A stretch of DNA of 64,000 bases, taken from Wolfiporia cocos (lineage: Eukaryota > Basidiomycota > Agaricomycetes > Polyporales > Phaeolaceae). Numbering within the stretch: the first letter of the stretch is position 1; every line of letters begins with the position of its first letter. Under the pieces are notes generated by a model. That model saw nothing but the letters and a program-made list of their open reading frames with translations, ran no database searches and was not told where the DNA came from. Made by a program: the position numbers and the translations under genes. Shown piece after piece: positions 2,404-33,664 of this stretch. The stretch is from assembly GCA_029448655.1 (NCBI GenBank), contig JACCLO010000017.1, forward strand, positions 124,001 through 188,000. Reading direction: 5' to 3'.

Positions 2404-3101
2404 TGTCACAGATTTGGGACATGCCACTATTTTTCCCGTATTTTTACCTATTTATCTGGTATTTTCTACGACCTTGTAGACATTTACGCTGCTAAGCGCC
2501 CGTCTACACGTACACGCAACCAAACTACACGTACACAACGCGGTATACGTCCACTTGTCATAACAACACGTACATAACACGTTTGTACGCGTCCATGACT
2601 CAGCGGACTAACCTCCGGTGTCACGCGCTTTACTCATATCCCGATACCGGGCTATGTCAGTACGATTGGATAAGCGGCCCGCTCGTTATCACATGCCAAT
2701 GCCCTTATGATTACTCATATCCCGATGCCGGTATATAAGAATCACATGCATGGCTTACTAACGTAGCTACAGCCACTTCCACAACATGGACCTACGGTCC
2801 AAACAAACGATCTTACTGGTGCGGCCATTACCGGCGCACATGGTCTATTGTAGTTTACGACTTAACCATATTAGTTATGTCTGCGCACAGACCGTCTTCA
2901 TGTTTGGCTCCCTTACTGGTAACCAAACAATGCATGTATATAAGTAGGGCTATCACTGCGGATAAGCCTTAGATTTGTTCTCTGCATTCGCATAGTTACA
3001 CATCATTCCTATTGCGCCCACTAGCTCTCCTCACCAAGCTCTACAACTCCTTCAAGTCGTAACAAGCTTATAGTGTGAGTCCCACAGTCTAGTCTGTGTC
3101 A
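2404..3101 (+). repeat. 5' LTR of G1 copy A (698 bp)
   Basis: It runs from TGTCACAGATTTGGG to AGTCTGTGTCA. The ends form the inverted repeat TGTCACAG/CTGTGTCA. U3 carries a 20-bp direct repeat with one mismatch (2631-2650 and 2712-2731, core CTCATATCCCGAT). A TATA-like tatataag (2732) abuts the second copy, and a second TATA box is at 2937-2944. The repeats could be activator sites; that is inference. Confidence 0.95.
2937..2981 (+). promoter_or_regulatory. G1 LTR promoter: TATA box and predicted RNA 5' end (self-primer)
   Basis: The TATA box tatataag (2937-2944) is 34 nt upstream of agatttgttct (2971-2981). That 11-mer is the exact reverse complement of 3104-3114, just inside the LTR. In Tf1 the first 11 nt of the RNA prime reverse transcription in this way, so 2971 is the predicted transcription start. 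Confidence 0.75.
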
Positions 3102-3103
3102 TA

Positions 3104-3114
3104 AGAACAAATCT
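3104..3114 (+). promoter_or_regulatory. self-priming primer-binding site of G1 copy A
   Basis: agaacaaatct lies two bases after the 5' LTR and pairs perfectly over 11 nt with 2971-2981. The pairing stops exactly at both ends of the 11-mer. I see no tRNA 3'-end complement (such as the initiator-Met TGGTA type) here. Confidence 0.75.
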
Positions 3115-4099
3115 GCCCCTACCCCTGCCCTTGCGCTTGCGCTTGGGCCTGGGTTTCTATCCTACAGGGGTGTATTGCTCGTTGCTGCGCACATTCCTTT
3201 CTGCCTGACAAGGCGATTGGGATGATAGTTGAGATCTGGGGGATACATCGCCATCCTCGGCAGAGGATTGGCAACCAGGGAAGCCACACCGCCTTTTTAG
3301 GCAAGAGGCCTACCTAACCCGGACTCCAGGGTCAAGGAGACATGGTCCTCGCTGACAAGCTTGGACTATGCGCGGTTAAGACCCGCCTGTGGAGAAAAGG
3401 GGACGGTCTGCCTGTGTGCGCCCAACCCCCTGTCATGGCAAGCGTTGTTCAGCGCCCCATCACTATCCACAGGGTCATCATTATGATGGCATGGGAATTT
3501 TCCAAAGCCGCCTCCCAGGCGTAAGGGACCTGCTTTGAACCCGTTATGGGAAAAGCAGTGAGGGGGATCATCTTCGGATAATCCTGCCAAAGGACAAGTG
3601 CGGTAGCCACAAAACATAAGTCCTCCGGGCAGTTCGGCGTGCACGTCATGGGGTCAAATAGGGCAAAGGGGTACACTTGCGCGCCTTAGGGCTAATCCAC
3701 TTACCTGTGGACGCGATGGTATTCCAATGTCCTGAAAAAGTCCCCGTGATAGTCTGTAGACGGCAACCTCATTGTTGAAGCATGGACAGGCTAAGGGATG
3801 TAAAATCCCAGCCACTTTCCGGCATCGTCCCTCCGGGGCGGTGTCGTGTATCCGAATCCCAATCATCTGACCCAGGAACCGGCCTGGCAGTCAGCAACTC
3901 TACCCCTGGAGTCGGCGCCTCTGACCGTTAGGGTCATGCGAATATCCGCGCCGTCTCGGCACAGGGTTTGCGCGCAACATAAGAGTAATTATGCCCCGTA
4001 GTACACCTTCTTTGCTCCTGAAAAGGAGTCCACTACCCTACCTTACATAATCCCTTTCATTCCTGTTCTTGGACGTATCACTGGGAAACTTCGTTTCTC
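3115..4099 (+). other. long leader of G1 copy A, no conserved coding frame
   Basis: About 1 kb lies between the primer site and ORF0, with only short overlapping frames. The same leader is present in copy D (31968-32952, reverse strand). A TCCTGAAAAGG motif occurs at about 4016, shortly before ORF0, and a similar TCCTGAAAAAG at 3730. The leader probably holds packaging or translation signals; this is inference. Confidence 0.6.
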
Positions 4100-5023
4100 A
4101 TGAAAGCTGCACTTTCTAGAATCATGCCCCGCGTTACCCGTCGCACCCGTGGCTCCTCCACTGCCCCTTACGTCAAACCGGCGAAGCGGTCTCTTCTCAG
4201 CCGCATCGACACCGCCGACATTCCTCGGGCAGAGGACGTCACCTACACACTTCCTGTAAAGGAAGATTACACCGGGAAGCTCCATCTTTGGGAGATTCCC
4301 GTCCACATGCCAAAGCACATTGCTGAGGCTGGGAAACCCGCTCCTCGACCTCCCAAACCAGTTCCGCTCGCTAAGCGTATCTGGACAGAGGAAGAGAAGC
4401 TAGCGCAATCCATTACCGCCATGGAGAATCTCATCGAACTCCGCGAACTCAACAAGCTCAAGCTCGCCCGCGATAAGCTGAATAAGCGAATCGCCGCCAA
4501 ACAAGCCGCCAAGGAAGCCAAGCAGGCAGCTTCTTCACTGGCCCTCCGTCTCTCCAGCCCGGCGGCCGGACCTTCCGTTCCGGCCAACCACAAAATTCTC
4601 GACCCTTCCCTCGTCTTCGGGAAGAAGAAGCCTCTCCAAGCATGCGACCAAGTTATTCCCATGCTAGAAGGCACTCTCACTCGTCTCACTCCTCTCGCCA
4701 ACCACCCCCCTAATTACCCAGGCTTCCATATGGAAAACGACATGCGTTTCCATACTATGGTAGTAGAATTGGAGGACTTGGTGGATAACGTAAAGGATAG
4801 AGCGAGACGAGGGAGGATCACCAATAGAGACTGGAGAATTATGAAAAAGTATTGCAAACAGCTCGGCAATATTTCCTTTTTGGATTGGCGTACGGACTTG
4901 GCTCGTATCGTAGCAGAATGCGTAGCGCTACAAATTACTTTTGCCTTCGGTGTAACACCACCTGACAAGGTGGCAGGGCCCTCAACTACTTCGGTAGAAG
5001 AGGATATACTCGCGATTGTATAG
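4100..5023 (+). CDS. ORF0 of G1 copy A: extra protein upstream of gag, unknown function (307 aa)
   Basis: This is an intact ORF starting MKAALSRIMPRVTRRTRG between leader and gag, ending with TAG 148 nt before the gag ATG. I do not recognise a domain. The N-terminus is strongly basic, residues about 35-85 are proline-rich with a KLHLWEIP segment, about 95-155 form a charged Lys/Ala-rich helix likely to be a coiled coil, and the last 100 residues look helical (MKKYCKQL, LARIVAEC). Copy D has the same 307-codon ORF open in full. G2 (271 aa) and G3 carry ORFs in the same place with the same layout. It is not protease, Gag or Env in appearance. It may be an accessory nucleic-acid-binding or assembly factor; that is a guess. 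Confidence 0.75.
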   Translation: MKAALSRIMPRVTRRTRGSSTAPYVKPAKRSLLSRIDTADIPRAEDVTYTLPVKEDYTGKLHLWEIPVHMPKHIAEAGKPAPRPPKPVPLAKRIWTEEEKLAQSITAMENLIELRELNKLKLARDKLNKRIAAKQAAKEAKQAASSLALRLSSPAAGPSVPANHKILDPSLVFGKKKPLQACDQVIPMLEGTLTRLTPLANHPPNYPGFHMENDMRFHTMVVELEDLVDNVKDRARRGRITNRDWRIMKKYCKQLGNISFLDWRTDLARIVAECVALQITFAFGVTPPDKVAGPSTTSVEEDILAIV

Positions 5024-5171
5024 TAGAAATACTATCATCTTTTAACTCTGAAATAGAGTGCGAGTGTGATCTATAACGAAAGTTGCAGTTTTCAAAACCC
5101 AATCCCTTCTTAAGAATCTAAGACAATGAGTAACCGGAAACTAACATTCGTCACAAACAGATTCACAAAAA

Positions 5172-7166
5172 ATGTCTTCCACCTCCTCCGTCAGCACTCC
5201 CCTCGCTCCCCGCAAGATGCGCCTCCGCTCAGAAGGCCCGGTGACACCGGTAGCTGGTCCCTCGGGAACCCAGCAACTGGTGACGCTGGAGCACCTAAGT
5301 GAGGGAGAGGAAGAAGAAGAAGAGGAAGAGGAAGTGCCGGAGTTCATTCCCCCGCAAAGGGAATCTCCGACCAACCCCATGGGTACACGCCCAGGCTCGC
5401 CCATTGCCGGATACCCCCCGGCTCGTCGCACCCGCCCCATCGGGCCCGCCACCACCCTGGAAATGGAATTTTCAGGGCCAACACGACAGACTAATATTGC
5501 TGTCGAAAACAACCTCAAAGCGTACCTCCCCGAGGAGGAACACCATAAGGTGGATGGGTCCATACATGGGCCAATCATTGACGCAGCCATCCAACGAGGG
5601 GCGGCAATCAGCCATGACACCACCGACACCTTAGGTCGAATGGTGCACGCCCGCCTGGAGCGCATCCATGGACGAATCGACTCCCTGGCTGGGCAATCCA
5701 GGGCAATCGAACAGAAGGCCCAAGACGAGTTACACGAAGCGGTCAATTCAGTCCGCAACGAGGTGCTGTCCACTCTGGTGGACCTCGGCAAGGAACTCCG
5801 GCAGGAGTACACCGCCAAGTTCTCCGCAATGGAGAAAGAACTTCGGAAGGATTACCGGTCCCGGCTCGACGACCTCGAGGATGCGTTCGCCGAGCGTATG
5901 GAGAAGGTCGAGGAGGAACTCCGGCGCAGCCGAAAGAACCCCTCCGTTCCCAACCCTCCCGGCGTCCGCACGCCACCGGAAGAGCCCGCACCGGCCCCCA
6001 ACACTGCTCGAACTCGCGCAGCCGAGGCCGCCGCCGCCGCGCAAGCTGCAGCCGCTGCTGCAGCAGCCGTCGCCCCGCAGATTCCAGGTCTGCCTCAAAA
6101 CCTGAAAATTCCTCCTCCCCCCGAATTCTCCGGGTCATCTGGAAAGGTGACTGCTCAGGAATGGGTGGAGAAGATGGGCCTGTACTTCGGTACGCTCAGG
6201 GTCTACGATGACCATGACCGTATCACCACGGCCCTCTTCCGCGTCACAGGGGACGCATACAAATTTTTCTCGCCTCTCATCAAGAAGGCAGGAAACGGTG
6301 AACCTCTCGGCACCTGGGAGGACTTCACCAAGTCAGTCATGGTGCAATATGGGAAGATGACGGATAAGGAGATAGCCAAGAAGGAAATTCGCGGCTATTA
6401 CGGCACGAAGGGCAAGGAACTGGCAGAATCGAACTACTTCAATTACTGCGAACGGTTCCGCACCCTCGGCCGTCTCTCTGAAACCGCCAATGAGACTCTG
6501 GTGTGGGAATTCACCGAGACTCTCCCAGAAAAGGTTAAGGACACCTTAAACGTCCTCGGCAAGACCCCGTTCTTCAAGGCCCCAACCGACATCGAACCCC
6601 TCATCGACTTCGCTCTGGAAATGTACCAAACGTCATATCCAGACAAGATCAAGGGTTCTATCTTCGAGAAGGCCGGCAAGAAGGACTCGGCACCTGCCGA
6701 AAAGAAGGAGACGTCCTCCGCTTCTGCAAAGAAGTCGGAGAAAAAGAAGGACAAGGGAAAGGCGCCCGCCAAAGCCCCCGCCGACACCACCAACGCCGTC
6801 TGCACATACTGCAAGCAGACAGGACATTACTTCAACAAATGTCCTAAGCTCGCGGCAGACAAGGCCGCGGGAACATTCGTGCCTGCCGCTCAGCGGGCCG
6901 AGCAACAAAGGGCGAAGGATGCAGCCGCCGCGTCTGGAAAGACCACGGCTGCCCCTTCGGGTAGTGGAAAGGGACAGGCTTCTGGCAAGAAGCCGTACTC
7001 GGCGCCCCCCGCGGATGGCAAGACGTATCGTGCCCGAACAATCTGGGAAGAAGTGACGGCTGACTCAAGCTCAGCAGGACCCTCGGCCCCCGCCACCACC
7101 GTCGCCAATGTCGGGACCATCTCGGTTCCCCTCGCCCCAACCACACGTCTCGAAGATGTCTTGTGA
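5172..7166 (+). CDS. gag: Gag polyprotein of G1 copy A (664 aa)
   Basis: Structural protein of the virus-like particle. The start is MSSTSSVSTPLAPRKM. Residues about 40-60 are an acidic Glu run. Residues about 160-260 are heptad-rich (coiled coil), followed by an Ala-rich stretch. The capsid domain runs from about 317 (PEFSGSSGKVTAQEWVEKMG) to 500, of the Ty3/gypsy Gag type. A Lys-rich linker leads to the CCHC zinc knuckle at 544-557 (CTYCKQTGHYFNKC). The TGA at 7164-7166 follows a pol-frame ATG (7156) by only 5 nt, so Pol is probably made by re-initiation or by +1 frameshifting in the overlap. Residues around the knuckle differ in a block from copy D. Confidence 0.93.
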   Translation: MSSTSSVSTPLAPRKMRLRSEGPVTPVAGPSGTQQLVTLEHLSEGEEEEEEEEEVPEFIPPQRESPTNPMGTRPGSPIAGYPPARRTRPIGPATTLEMEFSGPTRQTNIAVENNLKAYLPEEEHHKVDGSIHGPIIDAAIQRGAAISHDTTDTLGRMVHARLERIHGRIDSLAGQSRAIEQKAQDELHEAVNSVRNEVLSTLVDLGKELRQEYTAKFSAMEKELRKDYRSRLDDLEDAFAERMEKVEEELRRSRKNPSVPNPPGVRTPPEEPAPAPNTARTRAAEAAAAAQAAAAAAAAVAPQIPGLPQNLKIPPPPEFSGSSGKVTAQEWVEKMGLYFGTLRVYDDHDRITTALFRVTGDAYKFFSPLIKKAGNGEPLGTWEDFTKSVMVQYGKMTDKEIAKKEIRGYYGTKGKELAESNYFNYCERFRTLGRLSETANETLVWEFTETLPEKVKDTLNVLGKTPFFKAPTDIEPLIDFALEMYQTSYPDKIKGSIFEKAGKKDSAPAEKKETSSASAKKSEKKKDKGKAPAKAPADTTNAVCTYCKQTGHYFNKCPKLAADKAAGTFVPAAQRAEQQRAKDAAAASGKTTAAPSGSGKGQASGKKPYSAPPADGKTYRARTIWEEVTADSSSAGPSAPATTVANVGTISVPLAPTTRLEDVL

Positions 7167-10100
7167 AGAACACACCAGCCCCGCAGCGGCTGGGAGTGTA
7201 CAGCTCCCTGAAGAAGAGCACCCCTACGACGGGGCTTCACAAGGACCCCTTATCTTGTGGGAAGATAAGGCGGTCGTACGTCACCCGGTATCCCACATCG
7301 GTATATTCGGAAACTCGGCAATGGACTTTGCCCGGAGGACAAGGACACTAGCTACACGTGCCCCTCCTGTACAATACTTTCATCCTGACCCACTCGCGCT
7401 CAAGTTCTTTACTTTGTATAACGTTGTACATGGAAATGATTCCCGAGACGATAATAAATCATTCTCTATCGAAGTGGAACTGTGGGTATATGGAAAGAAA
7501 GTCAACGCCATGGCATTAATCGACACCGGTGCATCAATAAGCGTCATTGATAAGAAACTCGTCCACGAGGAAAAGTTAGTCACTCAGAAACTACCTTCGC
7601 CTCTCGAGATTCGTAACGCCGACGGTACCTCTAATACCGCCGGTAATATCAATATGGCAGTAAAAGCTTATATGGTGCACGAGGAACACAAGTCCACCGA
7701 ATTCTTGTACGTAATGGACGTACAGAATGCGGATGTGATCCTCGGATATGATTGGTTCCTGAAACACAACCCGGACTTCAACTGGCCGGAAGGAATCTTC
7801 ACATATCGGTGTACGGAAAAATGCAAACATGGCAAGCGGGTTTCGATTTCTGAGGAAGAGGACGAAATCGAACCCCGCAACATCTATCAGATCATCAATG
7901 ACTTTCCAATAGATTTTCTCGGCTTAGAGGAGCCGGAGAATCCCTTTGTCGCTTGGGTGAACACCCTTGACGAAGGAACGGAACTCCTTATCGATGCCAT
8001 TCAGTCGATAACGGAGAAGTCGGATGATGAATTCCTGACAGATGCGGATCTCCAGAAATGGAAATCCTTGGTTCCGGAGGAATACCAGGAGTTTGGTCCC
8101 ACGGTATTTTCTCAACGCGCATCCGAAAGGATGCCCGAACGGAAACCATACGACCACGCCATCGACTTCCCCGATGACGCGGTACTACCGCCCCCGAGTA
8201 AGGCATACAAGATGTCTCCTCAGGAAGCGAACTCGCTAGATCAGTGGATTCAGGAAGAGTTACGGAAGGGCTACATCCGACACTCGAAATCCCCGATCGC
8301 GAGCCCGGTCTTCTTCGTCCCTAAAAAAGACGGCGGAGCCCGAATGGTAGTCGATTACCGAAAAGTAAACGACTTAACCATTAAAAACAGGTACCCTCTC
8401 CCACGCATAGACGAGCTTATCGATAAGCTTAGCCAGGCTTCGATATTTACGAAGCTCGACTTGCGTTGGGGTTACAACAACGTAAGAATCAAGGAGGGAG
8501 ATGAATGGAAGACCGCATTCATTACGCCTAACGGCCTTTACGAAGCTGTAGTCATGTACTTCGGTTTTTGTAATGCACCCAGCACGTTCCAACACATGAT
8601 GAACGACATCCTAGGTGACCTTATCAGAGAAGGAAAGGTCATTGTCTACCTAGACGACATCCTTGTGTTCGGAAACGACCTGTTGGAACACCGTCGTATT
8701 GTCAAGCAAGTATTACAAATCTTGCAAGACAACGACTTGTTCGCGAAGCCTGAAAAGTGCTTTTTCGAACAAAGCAGTATTGAATACCTGGGAATGATCA
8801 TTTCCAAAGGAAAAGTCGAAATGGACCCTAAGAAGGTAGCCGGTGTCATGGACTGGCCTACACCCGCCAAGGTGAAGGACGTCCAAGCCTTTGTTGGCTT
8901 CGCCAACTACTACCGGCGGTTCATTAAAGACTTCTCCAAAGTGGTTAAGCCGTTAACCGAACTGTCCAAGAAAAACACACAATGGAACTGGGGACCCGAA
9001 CAAGCGGAAGCCTTCCAAACTCTCAAGGAAGCTTTCACATCGGCTCCAATACTCCGGATCCCAGATCAGGAATCCCCGTTCCGCGTGGAAGCGGATTCTT
9101 CCGATTACGCAACTGGTGCAGTGCTATCGCAATACTCTTCGGAGGATAAGCTCTGGCACCCGGTAGCCTTTTACTCGAAATCTCTATCAGCACCCGAAAG
9201 GAACTATGAGATTTACGATAAGGAGTTGCTCGCAATCATCCGCGCTCTAGAGGAATGGAGACATTACCTCGAAGGACACCCACATAAATTCGAAGTATGG
9301 TCGGATCATCTCAATCTGACATATTTCAAATCGGCACAACGGCTAACCCGGAGACAGGCACGTTGGAGTCTTTACCTGACAAGGTTCAACTTCACCATGT
9401 GTCACAAACCCGGTAAAACAATGCTCACGGCTGATCCTCTGTCACGGAGGCCAGACCATGAAGAGGGGGTGGAACTCGACAATCGCGATCAAATTTTGCT
9501 GAAACCGGAATACTTTACGGTTAGGGCGCTAGAAGCGTCACAGCAGGAGATACAATCAGGCGACGAGGACCTTCTCCGACAAATCCGACAAGCCCTCATG
9601 GACGATCAAATTACCAAGGATTACCAGGAACTACTGAAAAGTGGTCCCAAGGAATTCGGTAAAGATCTCCAGGAATGGAACATGGAGGCCGGATTACTCC
9701 TCAGACGAGGAAAAGTGTACGTTCCAAAAGAGCCTAAGGAATTGCGCACGAAGATTCTGGAGTTACATCATGACCATGTGACTGCCGGACACTTCGGACG
9801 ATGGAAGACCTATGAACTTCTATCACGTAATTACTGGTGGCCTGGAATGACCACGATGGTGAAGCAATACGTGGAAGGTTGTGATACATGCCAACGCATG
9901 AAGAACCACAACCAGACCCCGTACGGACCCCTGCAACCGCTCCCAGTTCCGGAAGCACCTTGGGACACCGTCACAATTGACCTTATCGTCCACCTACCGC
10001 CCAGCGGCGAATTGAAACAATTCAATGCTATTATGGTAATAGTGGACCGGCTTACCAAACGAGCACACTTCATTCCCACGTCAGACAAGATAACGGCAAA

Positions 10101-11646
10101 AGAATTAGCGAACCTCCTGTACCTTCGGATTTATCCGAACCACGGACTTCCGAAACAAATCATTTCGGATAGAGGCCCGCAATTCGCAGCCGCCTTATTC
10201 AAGGGATGGTGTGAGCAATTGGGAATCCAACGGTCAATGACAACCGCCTATCACCCGCAAGCGGATGGCCAGACGGAGAGAGTTAACCAGATCCTGGAAC
10301 AATATCTTAGATGTTACATCGATGTTATTCAGAAGGATAACTGGTCATGGTTTCTCCCAACGGCTGAATTCGCGTACAACAACGCGGCTAGTGAGACAAC
10401 AAAGAATAGCCCATTCTTTGTCGAACTAGGAAGGCACCCTAATGCAGGACCTACGAATTTACGTCCAACACCATACACGGACCTAAATGTCATTGCTTAC
10501 GAACGATGGTCAGCACAAGAACAAGCTAAGGCAGCAATGAAACTGGCTGCTGAACGCTGGTCTTGGTACTACGATCAACATAAGCGCTCGGTACCGTTTA
10601 AAGTCGGCGACAAAGTTCTCGTTGACGCCCGAAGCTGGCAAGACTCCGAAAGAAGTCTTAGTCCACGCTATTTGGGACCATTTAGGATAATTGAACAATT
10701 ATCTCCGGTCACCTTTAGGGTACACATGGACGAGCAATACAGGGCTTACCACCCAGTATTCCACGCTTCCAAGTTGGTCATGTACAAGGACCCGGTGCAT
10801 CAGAAAAAACCAGAGCCTCAACCAGAAATGGTCGACGGCGAAGAATTATGGGAAGTCGAGAAGATCTTAGATCATCGTCTCCGCGCAGGAAGAGTTGAAT
10901 ACAGAATCCGATGGAAAGGATTCGGTATCAACGACGACTCCTGGGTACGCGAAGCCGATCTCGACACGGCATACGACATCCTGCAGGAATACAAGGCTTC
11001 ACACGCCATTCCAACGCAGGATGTCCCCCTCAGGCGATCAGCTAGAAGGAAAGAAGCAGTTCACGTCTTCGACCCTGATAGCGACGACTGGGAAGCCGAC
11101 GAATGCACGTGGCCAGACGACTGGCCGCAGTATCGCGAAGAATTTGCGAAAGATCCTAAGCAGCGCATGGTTAGACACCCCGACGGGGGATGGATGTCAG
11201 CTGACATTAACCAAAATGCGGACTTGAAAATCGTAGTCGGCGAAGGCGGCCGAATGCCGGAAAAGGGAACCAAGGACTCGGTTGGGTTTGACCTGTACAC
11301 TGCAACAGGCGACGTTCTGCCAGCTCACGGGCAGACAGAATACAACACCAAACTGAAGATCCAGGTACCTTTCGGCACTTACGGACGTATCGCCCCCCGC
11401 TCTAGTCTCGCACGCAAAGGCATAGACGTAATGGGTGGCGTCATCGACCACGATTATCAAGGCGAAGTAATCATCATTCTCCGGAATCATTCCGATATAT
11501 CTATCGATATTCGGGCCGGCGATAAGATTGCTCAGCTCATCTGCGAAGTTGCTAAGGACCCGCATATTACGCTACACGGAAAATCTTACTTTGAAAAGAT
11601 TAAATCCGAGCGCGGTACTGGTGGTTTCGGCTCCACAGGAAAGTAA
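7156..11646 (+). CDS. pol: Pol polyprotein of G1 copy A: protease, RT, RNase H, integrase, chromodomain, dUTPase
   Basis: The frame is +1 to gag and open from 7108. I choose the ATG at 7156 (MSCEEH), overlapping the gag stop; 7108 is the alternative. Numbered from 7108: protease DTGA at Asp139; reverse transcriptase YLDD at 514-517; RNase H first Asp near 663; integrase zinc finger His888 to Cys925/Cys928; catalytic D958, D1021 and E1057 with the D,D35E spacing; chromodomain about 1246-1290 (ELWEVEKILDHR, RIRWKGF). A complete dUTPase follows at about 1387-1512 with all five motifs: SVGFDLY, APRSSLARKG, GVIDHDYQGEV, RAGDKIAQLI and GGFGSTG. The chromodomain presumably steers integration to marked chromatin. 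The dUTPase would hydrolyse dUTP during cDNA synthesis. No defect is seen. Confidence 0.96.
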   Translation: MSCEEHTSPAAAGSVQLPEEEHPYDGASQGPLILWEDKAVVRHPVSHIGIFGNSAMDFARRTRTLATRAPPVQYFHPDPLALKFFTLYNVVHGNDSRDDNKSFSIEVELWVYGKKVNAMALIDTGASISVIDKKLVHEEKLVTQKLPSPLEIRNADGTSNTAGNINMAVKAYMVHEEHKSTEFLYVMDVQNADVILGYDWFLKHNPDFNWPEGIFTYRCTEKCKHGKRVSISEEEDEIEPRNIYQIINDFPIDFLGLEEPENPFVAWVNTLDEGTELLIDAIQSITEKSDDEFLTDADLQKWKSLVPEEYQEFGPTVFSQRASERMPERKPYDHAIDFPDDAVLPPPSKAYKMSPQEANSLDQWIQEELRKGYIRHSKSPIASPVFFVPKKDGGARMVVDYRKVNDLTIKNRYPLPRIDELIDKLSQASIFTKLDLRWGYNNVRIKEGDEWKTAFITPNGLYEAVVMYFGFCNAPSTFQHMMNDILGDLIREGKVIVYLDDILVFGNDLLEHRRIVKQVLQILQDNDLFAKPEKCFFEQSSIEYLGMIISKGKVEMDPKKVAGVMDWPTPAKVKDVQAFVGFANYYRRFIKDFSKVVKPLTELSKKNTQWNWGPEQAEAFQTLKEAFTSAPILRIPDQESPFRVEADSSDYATGAVLSQYSSEDKLWHPVAFYSKSLSAPERNYEIYDKELLAIIRALEEWRHYLEGHPHKFEVWSDHLNLTYFKSAQRLTRRQARWSLYLTRFNFTMCHKPGKTMLTADPLSRRPDHEEGVELDNRDQILLKPEYFTVRALEASQQEIQSGDEDLLRQIRQALMDDQITKDYQELLKSGPKEFGKDLQEWNMEAGLLLRRGKVYVPKEPKELRTKILELHHDHVTAGHFGRWKTYELLSRNYWWPGMTTMVKQYVEGCDTCQRMKNHNQTPYGPLQPLPVPEAPWDTVTIDLIVHLPPSGELKQFNAIMVIVDRLTKRAHFIPTSDKITAKELANLLYLRIYPNHGLPKQIISDRGPQFAAALFKGWCEQLGIQRSMTTAYHPQADGQTERVNQILEQYLRCYIDVIQKDNWSWFLPTAEFAYNNAASETTKNSPFFVELGRHPNAGPTNLRPTPYTDLNVIAYERWSAQEQAKAAMKLAAERWSWYYDQHKRSVPFKVGDKVLVDARSWQDSERSLSPRYLGPFRIIEQLSPVTFRVHMDEQYRAYHPVFHASKLVMYKDPVHQKKPEPQPEMVDGEELWEVEKILDHRLRAGRVEYRIRWKGFGINDDSWVREADLDTAYDILQEYKASHAIPTQDVPLRRSARRKEAVHVFDPDSDDWEADECTWPDDWPQYREEFAKDPKQRMVRHPDGGWMSADINQNADLKIVVGEGGRMPEKGTKDSVGFDLYTATGDVLPAHGQTEYNTKLKIQVPFGTYGRIAPRSSLARKGIDVMGGVIDHDYQGEVIIILRNHSDISIDIRAGDKIAQLICEVAKDPHITLHGKSYFEKIKSERGTGGFGSTGK

Positions 11647-11685: not shown

Positions 11686-12383
11686 TGTCACAGATTTGGG
11701 ACATGCCACTATTTTTCCCGTATTTTTACCTATTTATCTGGTATTTTCTACGACCTTGTAGACATTTACGCTGCTAAGCGCCCGTCTACACGTACACGCA
11801 ACCAAACTACACGTACACAACGCGGTATACGTCCACTTGTCATAACAACACGTACATAACACGTTTGTACGCGTCCATGACTCAGCGGACTAACCTCCGG
11901 TGTCACGCGCTTTACTCATATCCCGATACCGGGCTATGTCAGTACGATTGGATAAGCGGCCCGCTCGTTATCACATGCCAATGCCCTTATGATTACTCAT
12001 ATCCCGATGCCGGTATATAAGAATCACATGCATGGCTTACTAACGTAGCTACAGCCACTTCCACAACATGGACCTACGGTCCAAACAAACGATCTTACTG
12101 GTGCGGCCATTACCGGCGCACATGGTCTATTGTAGTTTACGACTTAACCATATTAGTTATGTCTGCGCACAGACCGTCTTCATGTTTGGCTCCCTTACTG
12201 GTAACCAAACAATGCATGTATATAAGTAGGGCTATCACTGCGGATAAGCCTTAGATTTGTTCTCTGCATTCGCATAGTTACACATCATTCCTATTGCGCC
12301 CACTAGCTCTCCTCACCAAGCTCTACAACTCCTTCAAGTCGTAACAAGCTTATAGTGTGAGTCCCACAGTCTAGTCTGTGTCA
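11686..12383 (+). repeat. 3' LTR of G1 copy A (698 bp)
   Basis: Same length and, read side by side, same sequence as the 5' LTR. It is followed by the aactc TSD (12384-12388) and then by the reverse transcriptase region of copy B. Confidence 0.95.
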
Positions 12384-18840: not shown

Positions 18841-20726
18841 TCCGGGGCACTTAGTGATTTGCTATAGTACGCCACGGGGTGGAATTTTTTATCCGTAGGA
18901 TCTAACTGAGATAGTACTGCTCCGGTAGCGAAGTCTGACGCATCTGTTTCTACGCGGAAAGGCTGATCGTGCGACGGAATCCGAAGCACGGGCGCTTTGG
19001 TAAATGCTTCCTTTAGGGTTTGGAAGGCATTTTCCTGCTCGGCGTCCCAATGCCAAGCTTCTGACTTTTTGGTCAGCATGGTGAGTGGTTTGGCTATTTT
19101 TGAGAAACCTTCTATGAATCGCCTGTAGAAATTGGCGAATCCAAGGAAAGCTTGAACCTCTTTGACCTTAGTAGGTCTAGGCCAGTCCTGAACTCCGGCG
19201 TACTTCTTCGGATCCATCATAATGTTACCGTCGGAAATGATCATTCCTAGGTATTTGATGGAAGACTGTTCGAAAAAGCACTTTTCGGGCTTCGCATACA
19301 AGTCCGAGTCCTTCAGGGTTTGGAGAACCCCTTTGGTAAGTCGCCGATGTTCCTCCATATCATTCCCGAAAATCAAGATGTCGTCTAGGTAGACAACCAC
19401 CTTGCCGGTCCGAATGAACGGTGCGAGGATAGAATTCATCATCGCTTGGAACGTTGCAGGGGCGTTGCAGAAACCGAAATACATTACCGTTGCCTCGTAT
19501 AGTCCACGGTGTGTAATAAACGCCGTCTTCCATTCATCACCTTCCTTGATGCGGACATTATTGTATCCCCATCTAAGGTCAATTTTGGTGAAGATGGTCG
19601 CATGGGACAATTGATCGATTAGGTCATCGATCCGAGGTATCGGATAACGATTTTTTACGGTTATTTCGTTTAGCCTCCTGTAATCGACAACCATCCGCAG
19701 CCCTCCGTCCTTTTTGTGGACGAAGAAAACCGGGGATGCCATCGGACTTTCGGATGGTCGAATGTAACCCTTCCGTAGTTCGGTGTCTATCCACTCATCC
19801 AAGCTATTACGCTCTTGGGGAGACATTTTGTATGGTTTTACCGGGGGAGGAAGCTGCGCATCTGGTTCAAGTATTATGGCGTGATCCCAGGGCTTCCGTT
19901 CCGGCATCCTCTCTGACGCCTTTTGTGAGAACACCGTTGGCCCATACTCTTGGTATTGTTCGGGCACTAACGATCGCCATTTTTCAATGTTAATCGGTGG
20001 TGTGTTTTCCTCACGGTCGTCTGCTTCATCGAGGTCTTTGTCAAGTACCTCGGCTACCAACTGTGTCAGCAGGTTCATTTCCTCGTCGTCAAGGGTTGCC
20101 ACCCAAGCGATCAAAGGATTTTCGGGGTCCTCCTCTCCTAGTATGTCCACGGGAGTGTCCCAAATCGAATTTACTTCGATGATTTCCTTTTCTGGGAGTT
20201 CAACTGCTTCCTCCTCAGAAGGGCGGTTACCCTTTTTTCTGGCGTATGGTTGGTCGTGTGTACAGCGTGCATATTCCATTTCTCCTTTCCTCCAATCAAA
20301 GGTAGGATTGTGGAGACGCAACCAGTCATAGCCAAGGATTAGGTCTGGTTCTAGGTGCATGACCGTCAGACCTATTTTTTCCTTGTGTGTGCCATGTTGC
20401 ATAAATGCTTTTACTGATTGCGTTAAGCGGCCGGCGACGTTTTCTGTTCCGTCTGCGTTTGTAACCGTAATGGGAAACGCTAGTGTGTCGGTGACCAGCT
20501 TATGTTTATCGACCAATCGTTGTGATATGACCGATATGGTTGCACCGCTGTCGATTAAAGCCAGAGCCTGCACTTTTTGCCCATATACCCAGAGTGTTAC
20601 TTCGACACGGAAAGATCGAGCGAAGTCGCGCGCATCGTTGCCAAAAATATGATACATTGACTCGAATACACTCTTTACAGCGGGTACGGGACTAAAATTA
20701 CACGGGAGCACAAGTGGGCAGGTCAT
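18841..20726 (-). pseudogene. pol: pol of G2, N-terminal part: protease, reverse transcriptase, start of RNase H
   Basis: The ATG at 20726 overlaps the gag stop in the pentamer TGATG, a classical stop-start arrangement for coupled re-initiation. Protease has ALIDSGATISVIS with DSG in place of the DTG of G1. Reverse transcriptase has FTKIDLRWGYNN and YLDDILIFG. RNase H begins with VETDASDFATGAVL. The frame is open to KSLSAP, where N1-1 is inserted, and continues at 16944. Similar to G1 Pol throughout but clearly a different family. Confidence 0.93.
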
Positions 20727-22963
20727 CACATGTGCTCGGTGGGAAAACCCGAGGCAGAGCTTCCGTAGATGCCCAGGGTGTTTGCGGAGTCGGCTATCCG
20801 CTTGCGAAGCCAGGGCAGATGTGTCCTGATGGAGTCGCCCGACGGTGTAGGCGCAGTCGAAGTCGAACCAGTCGACTGGGTCTGGACGGGGCTGGTGCTT
20901 TCTGCCGATTGCACCGGGCTCCCGCTTTTCTCCTCATCGCTGATGCGCGTAGTGGGGGCCAGAGGAACCACCTCTGGTTGCTTCGGAACGTTGGTCCGGA
21001 TGGTCCCTACGGTGGCTTGGGGGGACTCATCTTCGTCGTCAGTCACCAGTTCCTGGGTGCTGACGATTCGGACCTTGTATTTCTTTTTCGGGTCCAACTT
21101 CTTCTGGCCCGACTGTTGCGTTCCGCTCGACGAGCCTGTCGGCTTCGTCGTTCCGCTTCCACTATTGGCCGGCTTGGCTTCCTTCGGCTTGTTCTTAGGG
21201 TTCTCAGGACAGTCGCCCCATTTGTGTTGTCCGGGGTGCTTGCGACAATCCTTCCCGTAAGAGCCGGTTTCCTTTGCCTTGCCTTTGCCTTTGTCATCAG
21301 CCTTGGCAGGCTTTGACGTAGCCTTGTCGGCGGTCTTGCCAGACCCCGACGACTCCTTCTTTTTTTCTTCCTCAAAGATCTTGCCTTTGAGCTTGTCCGG
21401 GTATTGCCTTTTGTAGAGGTCAATGGCCATATCGAGGTATACCTCCCAGTCGGTCGGCATTGTGAAGCCGGGGACCGATTCTAAGGTAGCGAGGGTTTCT
21501 CGCACCTTTTCCGGGAGGATCCGTTTGATGTGACTGAACAACGTTTTGTTGTCAGTCTCGGCCAGGCGAGCCAGGGTCCTGAGCTTCTGTGCCCAAGAGA
21601 AGAAGTCCGATTGGAGCTTCTTTTTCCCTTCGTCTCCGAAGTACCCTTCAATCTCCTTTTCGGCAATCTCTTTGTCCGTCTTCTTGCCGTACACCTTCTC
21701 GATCGTTTCTGCAAACGTTTTCCAGGTGTGCCCCGAGGTTTGTCCGGCGGCGATTTTATCAACTACCGGTGACATGTACTGGTAGGCCTCGCCCGTGAGT
21801 CGTAGCAGGGCTTGGCGAACCTTGTCTTCCTCGAGGGTTACCTTGGCGTCTGCGAAATACATGCCCATTTTTTGGATCCACTCTTTCGACGAGATGGAGT
21901 CCTTAGGGCCCGAGAATTTGGGCGGCTGAGTCGGTTTGGTCTGTTGGAAGTTGACCGTTGTGGCGGCTGCTGTTGCGGCTGCCGGTGCGTTTTTTAGAGC
22001 GGTTAACTCCGCTTCAAGTTGGTCGATTCTATTAATTAGTGCCGTGACCTGGGCACCGCTGGGTCCCGCGGTTGGGACTGCCGGACGCTTTTGCAGTACT
22101 GCGATGTCTTTTTCTATGCGGACGAACCGATTTTCGGAAAGGGTATCCAATTGTTGCCGCAAACTCTCCGCTTCCTCTAGTGCTTCTATTCTATTTTGAA
22201 GCACCTGGTTGTGACTCCGAATCTGGTTGGTCTTGTTCCAGACCATCTCCATATTCATGTCTACCCGGCTTTTGTATGCCGCGAGGTTGCTGTAGAGGTG
22301 GTTTTTGGCTTGGTACAGCGCCTCCCTGTAAGCTTCTTTTCCCACCTGCAGGACTTTGTCTGGGGCGGCCACTTCCAGAGTGCGCTGCAACCTTCCCATC
22401 AATTCATTCTCGCTTCTTTCTGGTTGCGCGACAATTTCCAGGGTTCCCCTTTCATAGGAGGGGAGGAGATCGGGGAGCGTCCCAAATAGGGGCTCCGTGT
22501 CGACTGGTTCCTCCGGCCGTGGAGTCTCGCTTCCTTCGGGGGTGATGACTGCTCGGCGTGCGGGTGTTTCCAGGTTGAAGAGCCTGGCGGCTCTCGTGCG
22601 TGGCGACGCTTCTTCCTGTGAGTACCAGTGGACGTCACCGTACAGGACTATGAGGTCCGACAGGGGGATGGCGGTGCAATAGTTGTCCCACCTCCACCAC
22701 GATATGTGGTTCCTAGTCGAATCTTCCCCATAGTACTTGATGTACGCTGTATGGTTTACATTCAGGAATGGGCGTATATGCGCCGGAATTGAGTTGAAGG
22801 AGGTGACACTCCCCCTAACTCTGATGCCGAATACGACTCGCAGGTAGTCCATCAAGCAGGTTTGCTCTCCGGGCCATGCGTGCTTGCCGACGGCGGGGCG
22901 GTAGGCCGTAGCCACCTTGTGGGTGTTGTACAGAGCGCCTTGTACGATCGTGTAAGACACCAT
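20726..22963 (-). CDS. gag: Gag polyprotein of G2 (about 745 aa)
   Basis: Intact frame. I take the first ATG (22963, MVSYTIVQGALYNTHK), although the frame stays open to 23017. The first 150 residues are a Trp/Tyr-rich region absent from G1 Gag. A probable coiled coil lies near residues 220-330. The capsid domain (about 338-520: PPKFSGPKDSISSKEWIQKM, KTDKEIAEKEIEGYFG) matches the G1 capsid. The nucleocapsid has CRKHPGQHKWGDC at about 569-583, i.e. C-x2-H-x3-H-x4-C instead of the usual CCHC knuckle. The tail is Ser/Thr/Pro-rich. It ends at TGATG shared with pol. Confidence 0.9.
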   Translation of the reverse strand: MVSYTIVQGALYNTHKVATAYRPAVGKHAWPGEQTCLMDYLRVVFGIRVRGSVTSFNSIPAHIRPFLNVNHTAYIKYYGEDSTRNHISWWRWDNYCTAIPLSDLIVLYGDVHWYSQEEASPRTRAARLFNLETPARRAVITPEGSETPRPEEPVDTEPLFGTLPDLLPSYERGTLEIVAQPERSENELMGRLQRTLEVAAPDKVLQVGKEAYREALYQAKNHLYSNLAAYKSRVDMNMEMVWNKTNQIRSHNQVLQNRIEALEEAESLRQQLDTLSENRFVRIEKDIAVLQKRPAVPTAGPSGAQVTALINRIDQLEAELTALKNAPAAATAAATTVNFQQTKPTQPPKFSGPKDSISSKEWIQKMGMYFADAKVTLEEDKVRQALLRLTGEAYQYMSPVVDKIAAGQTSGHTWKTFAETIEKVYGKKTDKEIAEKEIEGYFGDEGKKKLQSDFFSWAQKLRTLARLAETDNKTLFSHIKRILPEKVRETLATLESVPGFTMPTDWEVYLDMAIDLYKRQYPDKLKGKIFEEEKKKESSGSGKTADKATSKPAKADDKGKGKAKETGSYGKDCRKHPGQHKWGDCPENPKNKPKEAKPANSGSGTTKPTGSSSGTQQSGQKKLDPKKKYKVRIVSTQELVTDDEDESPQATVGTIRTNVPKQPEVVPLAPTTRISDEEKSGSPVQSAESTSPVQTQSTGSTSTAPTPSGDSIRTHLPWLRKRIADSANTLGIYGSSASGFPTEHM

Positions 22964-23025
22964 TGCTGGACAGTATTCGTCAGCTTGAGTTATTTTCTTC
23001 CTTAAACGATAATTCAAGAAAAGAG

Positions 23026-23115: not shown

Positions 23116-23682
23116 CTACAACTGGGGTTTGCCAAGGTCGAAGTTGAGACCGCTATGTACTAGATGAGTCTTTAAGTACGTAACGTGCTGTTTCACGTCT
23201 AGGTCTCCAAAAACGTGCTCCACCCTCCTGAGATATTTTTCGAGGCGGCGGAGATCTTCGTTCTTCATGGAGTCCTGACGGACCCTTTGCTCCAGGTGTG
23301 TGGAGAGATCGTCGAAGTCGGTGATGAGGGTGGTGAATTTTGCTATGATGGGGGCCGTGGTGGTTGCGTCGGGAACCTTCCATAGCCGGAAAAGGTTCTT
23401 GTGGGCGGCGTTCATCTGTTTGTCGACGTCTAAGAACCAGTCCCACTTCTTCTCCGTGCAATGGACGTCCCTGGGGTTCGGAAGACCCCGTTTCTCGACC
23501 CACTCGGCTGGCATCCTAAGCTCCTCCACCCTTTCCAACAGCGACTTCCTTGGGGGCTCGATTCGCTCCCGAAGACTCCTCACCATCCTCTCTTCCTCAA
23601 CCCTCTTCCTGGCCGCTTCGGCGATTAGCTGATCCAGTGATTGTTTCTGGATCCGAGCCTCGAGCTTCTCCTTCTGTCGGAG
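23116..23682 (-). pseudogene. ORF0 of G2, C-terminal part (split by G1 copy D)
   Basis: It continues the N-terminal piece at 33670-33913. The two pieces plus one aagct copy give 272 codons including the stop, so the frame was open before copy D inserted. It has a charged, likely coiled-coil start (Arg/Glu/Lys-rich), an FRLWKVPD segment reminiscent of HLWEIP in G1 ORF0, and a helical C-terminal region (RRLEKYLRRVEHVFGDL) comparable in placement to MKKYCKQL of G1. No known domain is recognised. Similarity to G1 ORF0 is weak and rests on layout and short motifs. Confidence 0.7.
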
Positions 23683-24425: not shown

Positions 24426-27400
24426 TTACTTTCCTGTGGAGCCGAATCCACCAGTACCGCGCTCGGATTTAATCTTTTCAAAGTAAGATTTTCCGTGTAG
24501 CGTAATATGCGGGTCCTTAGCAACTTCGCAGATTAGCTGGGCAATCTTATCGCCGGCCCGAATATCGATAGATATGTCGGAGTGATTCCGGAGAATGATG
24601 ATTACTTCGCCTTGATAATCGTGGTCGATAACGCCACCCATTACGTCTATGCCTTTGCGTGCGAGACTAGAGCGGGGGGCGATACGTCCGTAAGTGCCGA
24701 AAGGTACCTGGATTTTCAGTTTGGTGTTGTATTCTGTCTGCCCGTGAGCTGGCAGAACGTCGCCTGTTGCAGTGTACAGGTCAAACCCAACCGAGTCCTT
24801 GGTTCCCTTTTCCGGCATTCGGCCGCCTTCACCGACTACGATTTTCAAATCCGCGTTTTGGTTAATGTCAGCTGACATCCATCCCCCGTCGGGGTGTCTA
24901 ACCATGCGCTGCTTAGGATCTTTCGCAAATTCTTCGCGATACTGCGGCCAGTCGTCTGGCCACGTGCATTCGTCGGCTTCCCAGTCGTCACTGTCAGGGT
25001 CGAAGACATGAACTGCTTCTTTCCTTCTAGCTGATCGCCTGAGGGGGACATCTTGCATTGGAATAGGGTGTGAAGCCTTGTATTCCTGCAAAATGTCGTA
25101 TGCCGAGTCGAGATCCGCTTCGCGTACCCAGGAGTCGTCATTGATACCGAATCCCTTCCATCGGATTCTGTATTCAACTCTTCCTGCGCGGAGACGATGA
25201 TCTAAGATCTTCTCGACTTCCCATAATTCCTCGCCGTCGACCATTTCTGGTTGAGGCTCTGGTTTTTTCTGATGCACCGGGTCCTTGTACATGACCAACT
25301 TGGAAGCGTGGAATACTGGGTGGTAAGCCCTGTATTGCTCGTCCATGTGTACCCTAAAGGTGACCGGAGATAATTGTTCAATTATCTTAAATGGTCCCAA
25401 ATAGCGTGGACTAAGACTTCTTTCGGAGTCTTGCCAGCTACGGGCGTCAACGAGAACTTTGTCGCCGACTTTAAACGGTACCGAGCGCTTGTGTTGATCA
25501 TAATACCAAGACCAGCGTTCAGCAGCCAGTTTCATAGCTGCCTTAGCTTGTTCTTGTGCTGACCATCTGGCGTAAGCAATGGCATTTAAGTCCGTGTATT
25601 GTGTTGGACGTAAATTCGTAGGTCCTGCGTTAGGGTGCCTTCCTAGTTCGACAAAGAATGGACTATTCTTTGTTGTCTCACTAGCCGCGTTGTTGTATGC
25701 AAATTCAGCCGTTGGGAGAAACCATGACCAGTTATCCTTCTGAATAACATCGATGTAACATCTAAGATATTGTTCCAGGATTTGGTTAACTCTCTCCGTC
25801 TGGCCATCCGCTTGCGGGTGATAGGCGGTTGTCATTGACCGTTGGATTCCCAATTGTTCACACCATCCCTTGAACAAGTCAGCTGCGAATTGCGGGCCTC
25901 TATCCGAAATGATTTGTTTCGGAAGTCCGTGGTTCGGATAGATCCGGAGGTACAGGAGGTTCGCTAATTCTTTTGCCGTTATCTTGTCTGATGTGGGAAT
26001 GAAGTGCGCTCGCTTGGTAAGCCGGTCCACTATTACCATAATAGCATTGAATTGTTTCAATTCGCCGCTGGGCGGTAAGTGGACGATAAGGTCAATTGTG
26101 ACGGTGTCCCAAGGTGCTTCCGGGACTGGGAGCGGTTGCAGGGGTCCGTACGGGGTCTGGTTGTGGTTCTTCATGCGTTGACATGTGTCACAACCTTCCA
26201 CGTATTGCTTTACCATCGTGGTCATTCCAGGCCACCAGTAATTACGTGACAGAAGTTCATAGGTCTTCCATCGTCCGAAGTGTCCGGCAGTCACATGGTC
26301 ATGATGTAACTCCAGAATCTTCGTGCGCAATTCTTTAGGCTCTTTTGGAACGTACACTTTTCCTCGTCTGAGGAGTAATCCGGCCTCCATGTTCCATTCC
26401 TGGAGATCTTTACCGAATTCCTTTGGACCACTTTTCAGTAGTTCCTGGTAATCCTTGGTAATCTGATCGTCCATGAGGGCTTGTCGGATTTGTCGGAGAA
26501 GGTCCTCGTCGCCTGATTGTATCTCCTGCTGTGACGCTTCTAGCGCCCTAACCGTAAAGTATTCCGGTTTCAGCAAAATTTGATCGCGATTGTCGAGTTC
26601 TACCCCCTCTTCATGGTCTGGCCTCCGTGACAGAGGATCAGCCGTAAGCATTGTTTTACCGGGTTTGTGACACATGGTGAAGTTGAACCTTGTCAGGTAA
26701 AGACTCCAACGTGCCTGTCTCCGGGTTAGCCGTTGTGCCGATTTGAAATATGTCAGATTGAGATGATCCGACCATACTTCGAATTTATGTGGATGTCCCT
26801 CGAGGTAATGTCTCCATTCCTCTAGAGCGCGGATGATTGCGAGCAACTCCTTATCGTAAATCTCATAGTTCCTTTCGGGTGCTGATAGAGATTTCGAGTA
26901 AAAGGCTACCGGGTGCCAGAGCTTATCCTCCGAAGAGTATTGCGATAGCACTGCACCAGTTGCGTAATCGGAAGAATCCGCTTCCACGCGGAACGGGGAC
27001 TCCTGATCTGGGATCCGGAGTATTGGAGCCGATGTGAAAGCTTCCTTGAGAGTTTGGAAGGCTTCCGCTTGTTCGGGTCCCCAATTCCACTGCGTGTTTT
27101 TCTTGGACAGTTCGGTTAACGGCTTAACCACTTTGGAGAAGTCCTTAATGAACCGACGGTAGTAGTTGGCGAAGCCAACAAAGGCCTGGACGTCCTTCAC
27201 CTTGGCAGGTGTAGGCCAGTCCATTACGCCGGCTACCTTCTTAGGGTCCATTTCGACTTTTCCTTTGGAAATGATCATTCCCAGGTATTCAATACTGCTT
27301 TGTTCGAAGAAGCACTTTTCAGGCTTCGCGAACAAGTCGTTGTCTTGCAAGATTTGTAATACTTGCTTGACAATACGACGGTGTTCCAACAGGTCGTTTC

Positions 27401-30900: not shown

Positions 30901-31043
30901 TGTGAATCTGTTTGTGACGAATGTTAGTTTCCGGTTATTCATTGTCTTAGATTCTTAAGAAGGGATTGGTTTTGAAAGCTGCAACTTTCGTTATAGATCA
31001 CACTCGCACTCTATTTCAGAGTTAAAAGATGATAGTATTTCTA

Positions 31044-32965: not shown

Positions 32966-33664
32966 TGACACAGACTAGACTGTGGGACTCACACTATAAC
33001 CTAAGAAGCGACTTGAAGGAGTTGCTGGAGGTTGGTGAGGAGGCTAGTGGGCGCAAGCAGAGATGATATGTAACTGTGCGAATGCAGAGAACAAATCTAA
33101 GGCTTATCCGCAGTGATAGCCCTACTTATATACATGCATTGTTTGGTTACCAGTAAGGGAGCCAAACATGAAGACGGTCTGTGCGCAGACATAACTAATA
33201 CAGCTAAGTCGTAAACTACAATAGACCATGTGCGCCGGTAATGGCCGCACCAGTAAGATCGTTTGTTTGGACCGTAGGTCCATGTTGTGGAAGTGGCTGT
33301 AGCTACGTTAGTAAGCCAAGCATGTGATTCTTATATACCGGTATCGGGATATGAGTAATCGTAAGGGCATTGGCATGTGATAACGAGCGGGCCGCTTATC
33401 TAATTGTACTGACATAGCCCGGTATCGGGATATGAGTAAGACGCGTGACACCGGAGGTTAGTCCGCTGAGTCATTGACGCGTACAAGCGTGTTATGTACG
33501 CGTTGTTATGACAGGTGGACGTATACCGTGTTGTGTACGTGTTGTTTGGTTGCGTGTACGTGTAGACGGGCGCTTAGCAGCGTAAACGTCTACAAGGTCG
33601 TAGAAATACCAGATAAATAGGTAAAAATACGGGAAAAATAGTGGCATGTCCCAAATCTGTGACA
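32966..33664 (-). repeat. 5' LTR of G1 copy D (699 bp)
   Basis: Same sequence as 23688-24386 as far as I can read. The TSD aagct follows at 33665. Confidence 0.95.

What the first reader, a model, noticed from the sequence alone, without database searches (positions are those of the whole stretch)
4100..5023. An extra ORF ('ORF0') upstream of gag in three diverged Ty3/gypsy families
All three coding families carry a separate ORF between leader and gag: G1 copies A and D (307 aa each, fully open), G2 (271 aa after removing copy D) and G3 (decayed, 41291-42772). Standard Ty3/gypsy elements have only gag and pol, or an env-like ORF after pol. The proteins share a basic N-terminus, a charged Lys/Arg/Ala helix and a C-terminal helical region. 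Short motifs (LWEIP/LWKVP, KKYCKQL/EKYLRRV) may correspond. I recognise no known family. This is my best candidate for an undescribed component.
Basis: partly seen in the sequence, partly recalled or inferred. Interest (0 to 1): 0.88.

Follow-up and report, generated by a model that had tools for sequence, protein, structure and literature searches.

The report
Conserved extra gene upstream of gag
Several families of jumping genes in a wood-decay fungus carry an extra gene in front of their usual genes; it is preserved by natural selection and sits behind conserved splicing-like signals, which suggests that it is a working part of the elements, made from its own spliced message.

Summary
The ORF is real. 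The assembly matches Wolfiporia hoelen SS20. In copy A the likely start is 4124 (299 aa), not 4100. Nine sub-families in this genome carry a comparable ORF. G1 and G2 proteins are homologous over most of their length, G3/G4 over the C-terminal half. Outside relatives came only from W. cocos and probably contaminated Fusarium records. No convincing Pfam or PDB relative. ORF0 is as constrained as pol (dN/dS 0.062 between the window copies).

Unexpected: in 7 of 7 LTR-plus-leader sequences with a located donor, GTRAGT occurs once, near the LTR end, with diverged flanks. Branch-like plus acceptor signals precede the gag ATG and, with a relaxed motif, the ORF0 ATG in 10 of 11 representatives each. 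I infer that ORF0 and gag are read from alternatively spliced mRNAs and that unspliced RNA is the genome. There is no RNA evidence and no spliced retrocopy was found. Function is inferred only. Extra ORFs upstream of gag are known in plants: a new variant of a known kind.

The parts
2404..3101 (+). 5' LTR of G1 copy A
   Evidence: identical to 11686-12383
2937..2944 (+). TATA box (TATATAAG), 138 nt before the putative donor
3075..3080 (+). putative 5' splice donor GTGAGT in U5, the only GTRNGT in LTR plus leader of copy A
   Evidence: inferred from sequence, no RNA data
3102..4123 (+). leader of copy A with 16 upstream ATGs; most of the putative intron towards ORF0
4097..4119 (+). putative acceptor 1: branch-like CTCAT 4097-4101, TAG 4117-4119, 4 nt before the ORF0 ATG
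   Evidence: relaxed branch motif
4124..5023 (+). ORF0 of copy A, 299 aa from the likely start (reader: 4100)
5141..5160 (+). putative acceptor 2: branch CTAAC 5141-5145, CAG 5158-5160, 11 nt before the gag ATG
5172..7166 (+). gag of copy A
   Evidence: Ty3_capsid, Retrotrans_gag and zinc-knuckle matches, all below the curated cut-offs
7108..11646 (+). pol of copy A: protease, RT, RNase H, integrase, chromodomain, dUTPase
11686..12383 (+). 3' LTR of copy A
31044..31943 (-). ORF0 of G1 copy D
32987..32992 (-). putative donor GTGAGT of copy D
28903..30942 (-). gag of copy D
24426..28970 (-). pol of copy D
23116..23586 (-). C-terminal part of G2 ORF0 (156 aa); the 5' part lies beyond inserted copy D and was not joined
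20726..23017 (-). G2 gag
34629..34634 (-). putative donor GTAAGT in the G2 5' LTR (34615-35233)
38919..38924 (+). putative donor GTGAGT in the LTR 38485-38944, taken to be that of G3 (partner 53811-54266, 86% identical)
41291..42344 (+). decayed G3 ORF0 in two frames (41291-41848 and 41568-42344)

Best explanation
ORF0 is a conserved accessory gene of a lineage of Ty3/gypsy chromoviruses in Wolfiporia. Shown: it is a separate, homologous protein family between leader and gag, under purifying selection in the six sub-families where this could be measured. Suggested by anatomy but not shown at RNA level: transcripts start about 100 nt before a splice donor in U5 (TSS assumed about 30 nt after the TATA box) and are spliced either to an acceptor 2-5 nt before the ORF0 ATG or to one 0-11 nt before the gag ATG. 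This gives two short-leader mRNAs, one for ORF0 and one for Gag(-Pol), while unspliced RNA keeps the leader and is the genome. Inferred only: the protein (basic N-terminus, long helix that looks like a coiled coil, helical C-terminal part, no transmembrane segment) is an oligomeric nucleic-acid-binding helper acting in trans on the element's own unspliced RNA (export, packaging or splice choice).
For: Homology: hhalign G1-G2 probability 92.7%, E 4.1e-7 over 205 columns, 0 of 60 column shuffles as high; G1+G2 against G3/G4 P 6.1e-4, 0 of 60. Selection: copies A and D, both from the window and not picked by similarity, give dN/dS 0.062 for ORF0, 0.102 gag, 0.067 pol. Pooled pN/pS is 0.12 (G2), 0.22 (G2b), 0.10 (G3), 0.17 (G4a), 0.20 (G4b); the two wrong frames give 1.1-2.3 in these five. 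Donor: found in 15 of 16 copies; in 7 of 7 LTR-plus-leader sequences with a located donor GTRAGT occurs exactly once in 885-1449 nt (7 seen in 7109 nt, about 3.5 expected by chance anywhere), near the LTR end, while the 40 nt before it match at only 7-17 of 40 positions. TATA to donor is 131-151 nt in 14 of 15; no ATG in the 105 nt before it in 14 of 15; 4-17 ATGs from donor to the ORF0 ATG. Acceptors, 11 representatives of nine sub-families: gag 10 of 11 against 9 of 369 other ATGs; ORF0, relaxed branch, 10 of 11 against 3 of 369. ORF0 then gag in 13 of the 18 fetched regions whose listing was not cut. Basic N-terminus in 17 of 18 members measured; no TM segment.
Against: No transcript evidence. 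The implied introns (about 0.5-1 kb to ORF0, 1.7-2.1 kb to gag) are long for a basidiomycete (recalled). Four spliced-junction patterns gave no junction in the genome (the best near-match is unspliced), though RNA lacking the primer site would rarely be copied. At the ORF0 acceptor the stricter branch motif gave 0 of 11; CTNAY was chosen after seeing the sequences, and sub-families share ancestry, so the contrasts overstate independence. The seven sequences were ones where I had already located a donor; G2b, G2c and G3b could not be checked (LTR not held or cut by an insertion), L040 showed none in the 948 nt held, and G3d has GTAAGC. G4 LTR ends were read from the sequence, not from LTR pairs. 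A non-coding LTR element (45491-47399) also has GTAAGT 14 nt from one LTR end, its relative (16950-18841) GCAAGT, so the hexamer may have another role. G1 alone against G3/G4 is not significant (P 0.14; 6 of 60 shuffles as high). Structure models are poor (pLDDT 51.8 and 55.0). No functional evidence.
Confidence: 0.7

Rival explanations
1. ORF0 and gag are both translated from the full-length RNA by reinitiation or internal entry; the donor- and acceptor-like motifs have other roles (LTR-end recognition, 3'-end formation, start-codon context).
For: GTAAGT also lies 14 nt from an LTR end of a non-coding LTR element, the same distance as in some G4 copies. No spliced retrocopies. Hairpins, one over the ORF0 stop in G1, are enriched in leaders and spacers (15 with GNRA or GAAAA loops, some counted under two loop lengths, against 2.3 in resampled sequence).
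Against: 4-17 ATGs between donor and ORF0, none in the 105 nt before the donor in 14 of 15 copies; branch plus YAG at both starts far above other ATGs; donor-to-LTR-end distance varies from 14 to 27 nt; the hairpins are seen in four of the nine sub-families only.
Confidence: 0.2
2. Same gene and expression, different job: ORF0 acts against host silencing, or as a cofactor of particle assembly or nuclear import, not on the element's RNA.
For: Basic N-terminus and long helix fit many roles; fast divergence between families (ORF0 about 21-23% identity against 61-67% for pol) would fit a host-facing protein.
Against: Purifying selection without sign of positive selection at whole-gene level (site-wise tests not run); no direct test.
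Confidence: 0.3
3. ORF0 is the N-terminal (matrix-like) part of Gag, split off or joined by splicing.
For: It lies just before gag.
Against: No similarity to gag (best hhalign P 0.12); ORF0 has its own stop, and 16 of 23 copies have no donor consensus in ORF0 or the spacer scanned; gag has its own start and acceptor-like signal.
Confidence: 0.04
4. A captured host gene or passenger without a role in the element.
For: None found.
Against: Purifying selection in six of the seven sub-families tested, the seventh (G2c, three changes) being uninformative; no host-like domain.
Confidence: 0.02

Closest known systems
ORF0 of rice Retrosat2, RIRE3, RIRE8 (PMC3485330, passages read)
   Same: extra sense ORF upstream of gag-pol in Ty3/gypsy elements, diverging faster than gag-pol, function unknown
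   Different: no plant relative came up in three protein searches; LTRs of about 3 kb there, 0.46-0.7 kb here; the passages read report no splice anatomy
Fungal chromoviruses with dUTPase, Postia placenta PosPlaTy3 (PMC2864245, section 5 read)
   Same: chromodomain and dUTPase pol (C-terminal in PosPlaTy3-4) in another polypore; [quoted passage not shown]
   Different: the text does not say which elements carry it or where; no homology, selection or splicing analysis in the section read
BARE1 spliced gag RNA (PMC3735527, passages read)
   Same: separate RNA pools for translation and for genome; a spliced RNA for Gag
   Different: BARE1 is Ty1/copia; its 104-nt intron lies at the gag/pol border; here the donor would be in U5 and gag downstream of the intron
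Complex retroviruses (regulatory genes from spliced mRNA; foamy virus donor in R) - recalled, no call
   Same: alternative splicing from one 5' donor, accessory protein
   Different: no sequence relation known; position before gag; function untested

Membership tests
Ty3/gypsy chromovirus | LTRs and pol order protease-RT-RNase H-integrase-chromodomain | tested here: met
   G1 and G2
Plant-type ORF0/aORF upstream of gag | extra sense ORF between 5' LTR and gag in many copies | tested here: met
   (position only)
Plant-type ORF0/aORF upstream of gag | sequence homology with the plant proteins | tested here: not met
   no plant hit (word-based search, limited reach)
Retroviral env | position after pol and transmembrane segment | tested here: not met
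   before gag; highest 19-residue hydropathy 1.68 in G1, at most 1.07 in the other members of 250 aa or more
Gag/matrix | homology to gag or continuous frame with it | tested here: not met
Spliced accessory gene | donor and acceptor consensus conserved across diverged sub-families | tested here: met
   at the ORF0 acceptor only with a relaxed branch motif; donor not checkable in G2b, G2c, G3b
Spliced accessory gene | observed spliced transcript | not testable with these tools
   no RNA data; genomic junction search negative
Rev/Rex-like RNA regulator | binding to own unspliced RNA and nuclear shuttling | not testable with these tools
   only a basic N-terminus and loose NES-like patterns, which are weak

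The most novel reading that the evidence does not exclude
Fungal Ty3/gypsy elements evolved a two-step expression programme like that of complex retroviruses: a U5 donor with a weaker (CTNAY) acceptor at ORF0 and a stronger (often CTAAC) acceptor at gag, and ORF0 itself as a trans-acting RNA-binding regulator that shifts RNA from spliced mRNA to unspliced genome.
Probability: 0.17. Interest if true: 0.85.

Novelty: new variant of a known kind. Interest (0 to 1): 0.62.

Why it matters
It would give an abundant, recently active group of fungal chromoviruses (Gypsy elements of all kinds are 25.49% of the W. hoelen genome, PMC9503964) a third conserved gene and a splicing-based solution to the conflict between translating and packaging the same RNA. 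Both parts are directly testable in a cultivated medicinal fungus. It would also explain a set of 'hypothetical proteins' in W. cocos.

Tried and rejected
Structure: two AlphaFold2 jobs (and 57/69) gave mean pLDDT 51.8 and 55.0; in G1 only a long helix is fairly confident (block means 75-87 over residues 91-140). That it is a coiled coil was not tested. I ran no fold search on these models because matches would be meaningless.

Domain libraries: Pfam for 13 members of A1, 17 of A5 and 7 window proteins, and PDB profiles for A1 and A5, gave nothing convincing for ORF0: scattered Pfam matches at E 0.0026 or worse and below cut-off where one was shown, and three PDB sequences of one TFIIH subunit domain at E about 0.5.

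Donor depletion inside ORF0: 3 seen, 5.4 expected by synonymous shuffles, 45 of 300 as low, so not significant. Strict branch consensus at the ORF0 acceptor: 0 of 11; CTNAY 10 of 11 (3 of 369 background), YTNAY 10 of 11 (11 of 369), chosen after seeing the sequences. Spliced junctions in the genome: none. Hairpins: enriched overall but seen in four of nine sub-families only.

Bias notes. G1 and most G2 loci are the best protein hits, so their pN/pS of 0.02 and 0.12 are biased low; I rely on the window pair and on the other sub-families. G2c (one pair, three changes) gave 0.61, with wrong-frame ratios 0.34 and 0.72, and says nothing. Copy counts are lower bounds: 129 of 453, 150 of 466 and 64 of 64 candidates were scored. 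In one search the spacer was scanned only to the first ATG in the gag frame, which in some copies lies 37-59 nt after ORF0. Genomes of other fungi could not be searched, so absence outside Wolfiporia rests on three word-based protein searches. Papers also looked at by passages without result for this question: PMC3248453, PMC5408684, PMC9289625; PMC6317226 had none of the terms.

Full report
What is there. The window is C9:124001-188000 of a 64,431,438-base, 76-contig assembly whose contig C1 has 5,289,744 bases. A paper on Wolfiporia hoelen SS20 reports 64.44 Mb, 78 contigs, longest 5.29 Mb, N50 3.76 Mb, and Gypsy elements as 25.49% of the genome (PMC9503964, passages read); I take this as the organism (inference). 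Copy A of family G1 (2404-12383) has identical LTRs, then a leader, ORF0, gag, and a pol with protease, RT, RNase H, integrase, chromodomain and dUTPase. Copy D (23681-33664, minus strand) is the same kind and is inserted in a G2 element.

ORF0 is a family. Searching the assembly with the G1, G2 and G3 proteins found at least 129, 150 and 50 matches. G2 and G3 matches include diverged sub-families (53-63% to G2; 23-33% to G3). In 13 of the 18 fetched regions whose listing I saw (two of 20 were cut in the output) an ORF0 frame of at least 270 codons, stop to stop, is followed by a gag frame of at least 360; these regions were chosen by their ORF0 match. Profile comparison: G1-G2 probability 92.7%, E 4.1e-7 over 205 columns; G2 against G3/G4 P 0.0018; G1+G2 against G3/G4 P 6.1e-4; in these three, 0 of 60 column shuffles scored as high. 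G1 alone against G3/G4 was not significant (P 0.14, 6 of 60 shuffles as high). Shared motifs include RD[VI]xC[TS]ExxW, common in G2 and G4 with variants elsewhere, and a C-terminal helix pair with a DDL...N..LR..KKY-like pattern. Outside this genome, relatives came from W. cocos MD-104 (63%, 61% and 70% identity for the closest in the three searches) and from Fusarium falciforme proteins 97-99% identical. No convincing Pfam or PDB relative was found. ORF0 has no similarity to gag.

Selection. Between copies A and D, which were not chosen by similarity, dN/dS is 0.062 (ORF0; 35.5 synonymous and 7.5 nonsynonymous changes), 0.102 (gag) and 0.067 (pol). Pooled pN/pS within G2, G2b, G3, G4a and G4b is 0.10-0.22, and the most diverged pairs listed give dN/dS 0.06-0.20; the same counting in the two wrong frames gives 1.1-2.3 in these five. 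G1 (0.02) is biased by the choice of loci; G2c (one pair, three changes, 0.61) says nothing. So ORF0 is about as constrained as pol within families. Across families it diverges faster: about 21-23% identity, against 33% for gag and 61-67% for pol.

Splice anatomy. This was not in the finding. (a) Donor: each of the LTRs G1A, G1D, G2 and G3 in the window has exactly one GTRNGT, 20-27 nt from its end. A donor consensus (GTRAG[TC]) before an LTR-end-like sequence was found in 15 of 16 copies; the sixteenth, L040, holds only 948 nt before ORF0, and in the window's G3 copy the LTR lies about 2.3 kb before it. In seven LTR-plus-leader sequences where I had located it, GTRAGT occurs exactly once in 885-1449 nt (7 in 7109 nt, about 3.5 expected by chance at any place), while the 40 nt before it are 7-17/40 identical between them. 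TATA-to-donor distance is 131-151 nt in 14 of 15 copies; the 105 nt before the donor hold no ATG in 14 of 15; donor to ORF0 holds 4-17 ATGs. G3d has GTAAGC; G2b, G2c and G3b could not be checked. (b) Acceptor at gag: branch [CT]T[AG]A[CT] and YAG within 12 nt of the ATG in 10 of 11 representatives of nine sub-families, against 9 of 369 other ATGs in the same sequences; the G4 ones read ACTAAC...YAG. (c) Acceptor at ORF0: YAG within 6 nt in 11 of 11 (74 of 369 elsewhere); with a relaxed CTNAY branch 10 of 11 (3 of 369), but with the stricter motifs 0 of 11. (d) 16 of 23 copies have no GTRNGT in ORF0 or in the spacer scanned, a scarcity that is not itself significant; so ORF0 would probably stay whole in an mRNA spliced to its acceptor and be removed in one spliced to the gag acceptor. 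The sub-families share ancestry, so these counts are not independent trials.

Mechanism. Most likely the LTR transcript is spliced from U5 either to ORF0 or to gag; both mRNAs lose the primer site and the ATG-rich leader, and unspliced RNA is the genome. ORF0 is then a trans-acting accessory protein. Its basic N-terminus (pI 9.4-11.4 over the first 80 residues in 17 of 18 members measured; 5.1 in L032), long helix and helical C-terminus suggest an oligomeric nucleic-acid-binding protein; action on the element's own unspliced RNA is my preferred guess, not a result. It has no transmembrane segment, so it is not env-like.

Against. There is no RNA evidence; introns of 0.5-2.1 kb are long for such fungi (recalled); junction patterns of spliced copies were not found (with the best near-match shown to be unspliced); and a small non-coding LTR element in the window also has GTAAGT 14 nt from one LTR end, so the hexamer may serve something else.

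Relation to the known. Extra ORFs upstream of gag exist in plant Ty3/gypsy elements (PMC3485330, PMC7264820, passages). A 2010 survey of fungal elements reports dUTPase in Postia elements, C-terminal in one, and an additional ORF of unknown function in a figure legend (PMC2864245, section 5 read). BARE separates translated and packaged RNA and splices a gag RNA (PMC3735527, passages). In my searches I saw no paper, among the rows listed, on an ORF upstream of gag with splicing in fungal elements; that covers only the open-licence library, and capped lists. Hence a new variant of a known kind.

Noticed in passing
P0001 and P0007: Fusarium falciforme records (NW754, and NW765 for one of them) hold proteins 97-99% identical to the G1 and G2 ORF0s; in NW754 the gene numbers are neighbours (016277, 016278) and both list a 23.9-kb contig. 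Probably Wolfiporia DNA contaminating those assemblies, less likely horizontal transfer.
   Followed up: no
window 2404-12383 against 23681-33664: Divergence between copies A and D is uneven (leader 1.5%, LTR 4.2%, dS 0.18 in ORF0, 0.45 in gag, 0.10 in pol), as if the sub-families were mosaics made by recombination.
   Followed up: no
window 5020-5035: A 6-bp perfect hairpin with GAAA loop overlaps the ORF0 stop in G1; hairpins with GAAA, GCAA or TGAAAA loops also occur in the G1 leader and in the G3b and G3d spacers. Possibly a packaging or translation signal.
   Followed up: partly
window 16950-18841 and 45491-47399: Two young LTR elements without long ORFs (identical LTRs of 593 and 559 bp, internal 706 and 791 bp) with TGTCAC...TGTGACA-like ends; one has GTAAGT 14 nt from an LTR end, the other GCAAGT.
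   Followed up: partly
window 11251-11640 and 14406-16955: dUTPase domain fused to the C-terminus of pol in G1 and G2, as described for a Postia placenta element (PMC2864245).
   Followed up: partly
window 7108-7166: pol overlaps the end of gag in the +1 frame, so Gag-Pol probably needs a frameshift or another route.
   Followed up: no
window 58105-60738 (-): Two ORFs matching parts of a fungal protein kinase family (PF17667, Pkinase_fungal).
   Followed up: no
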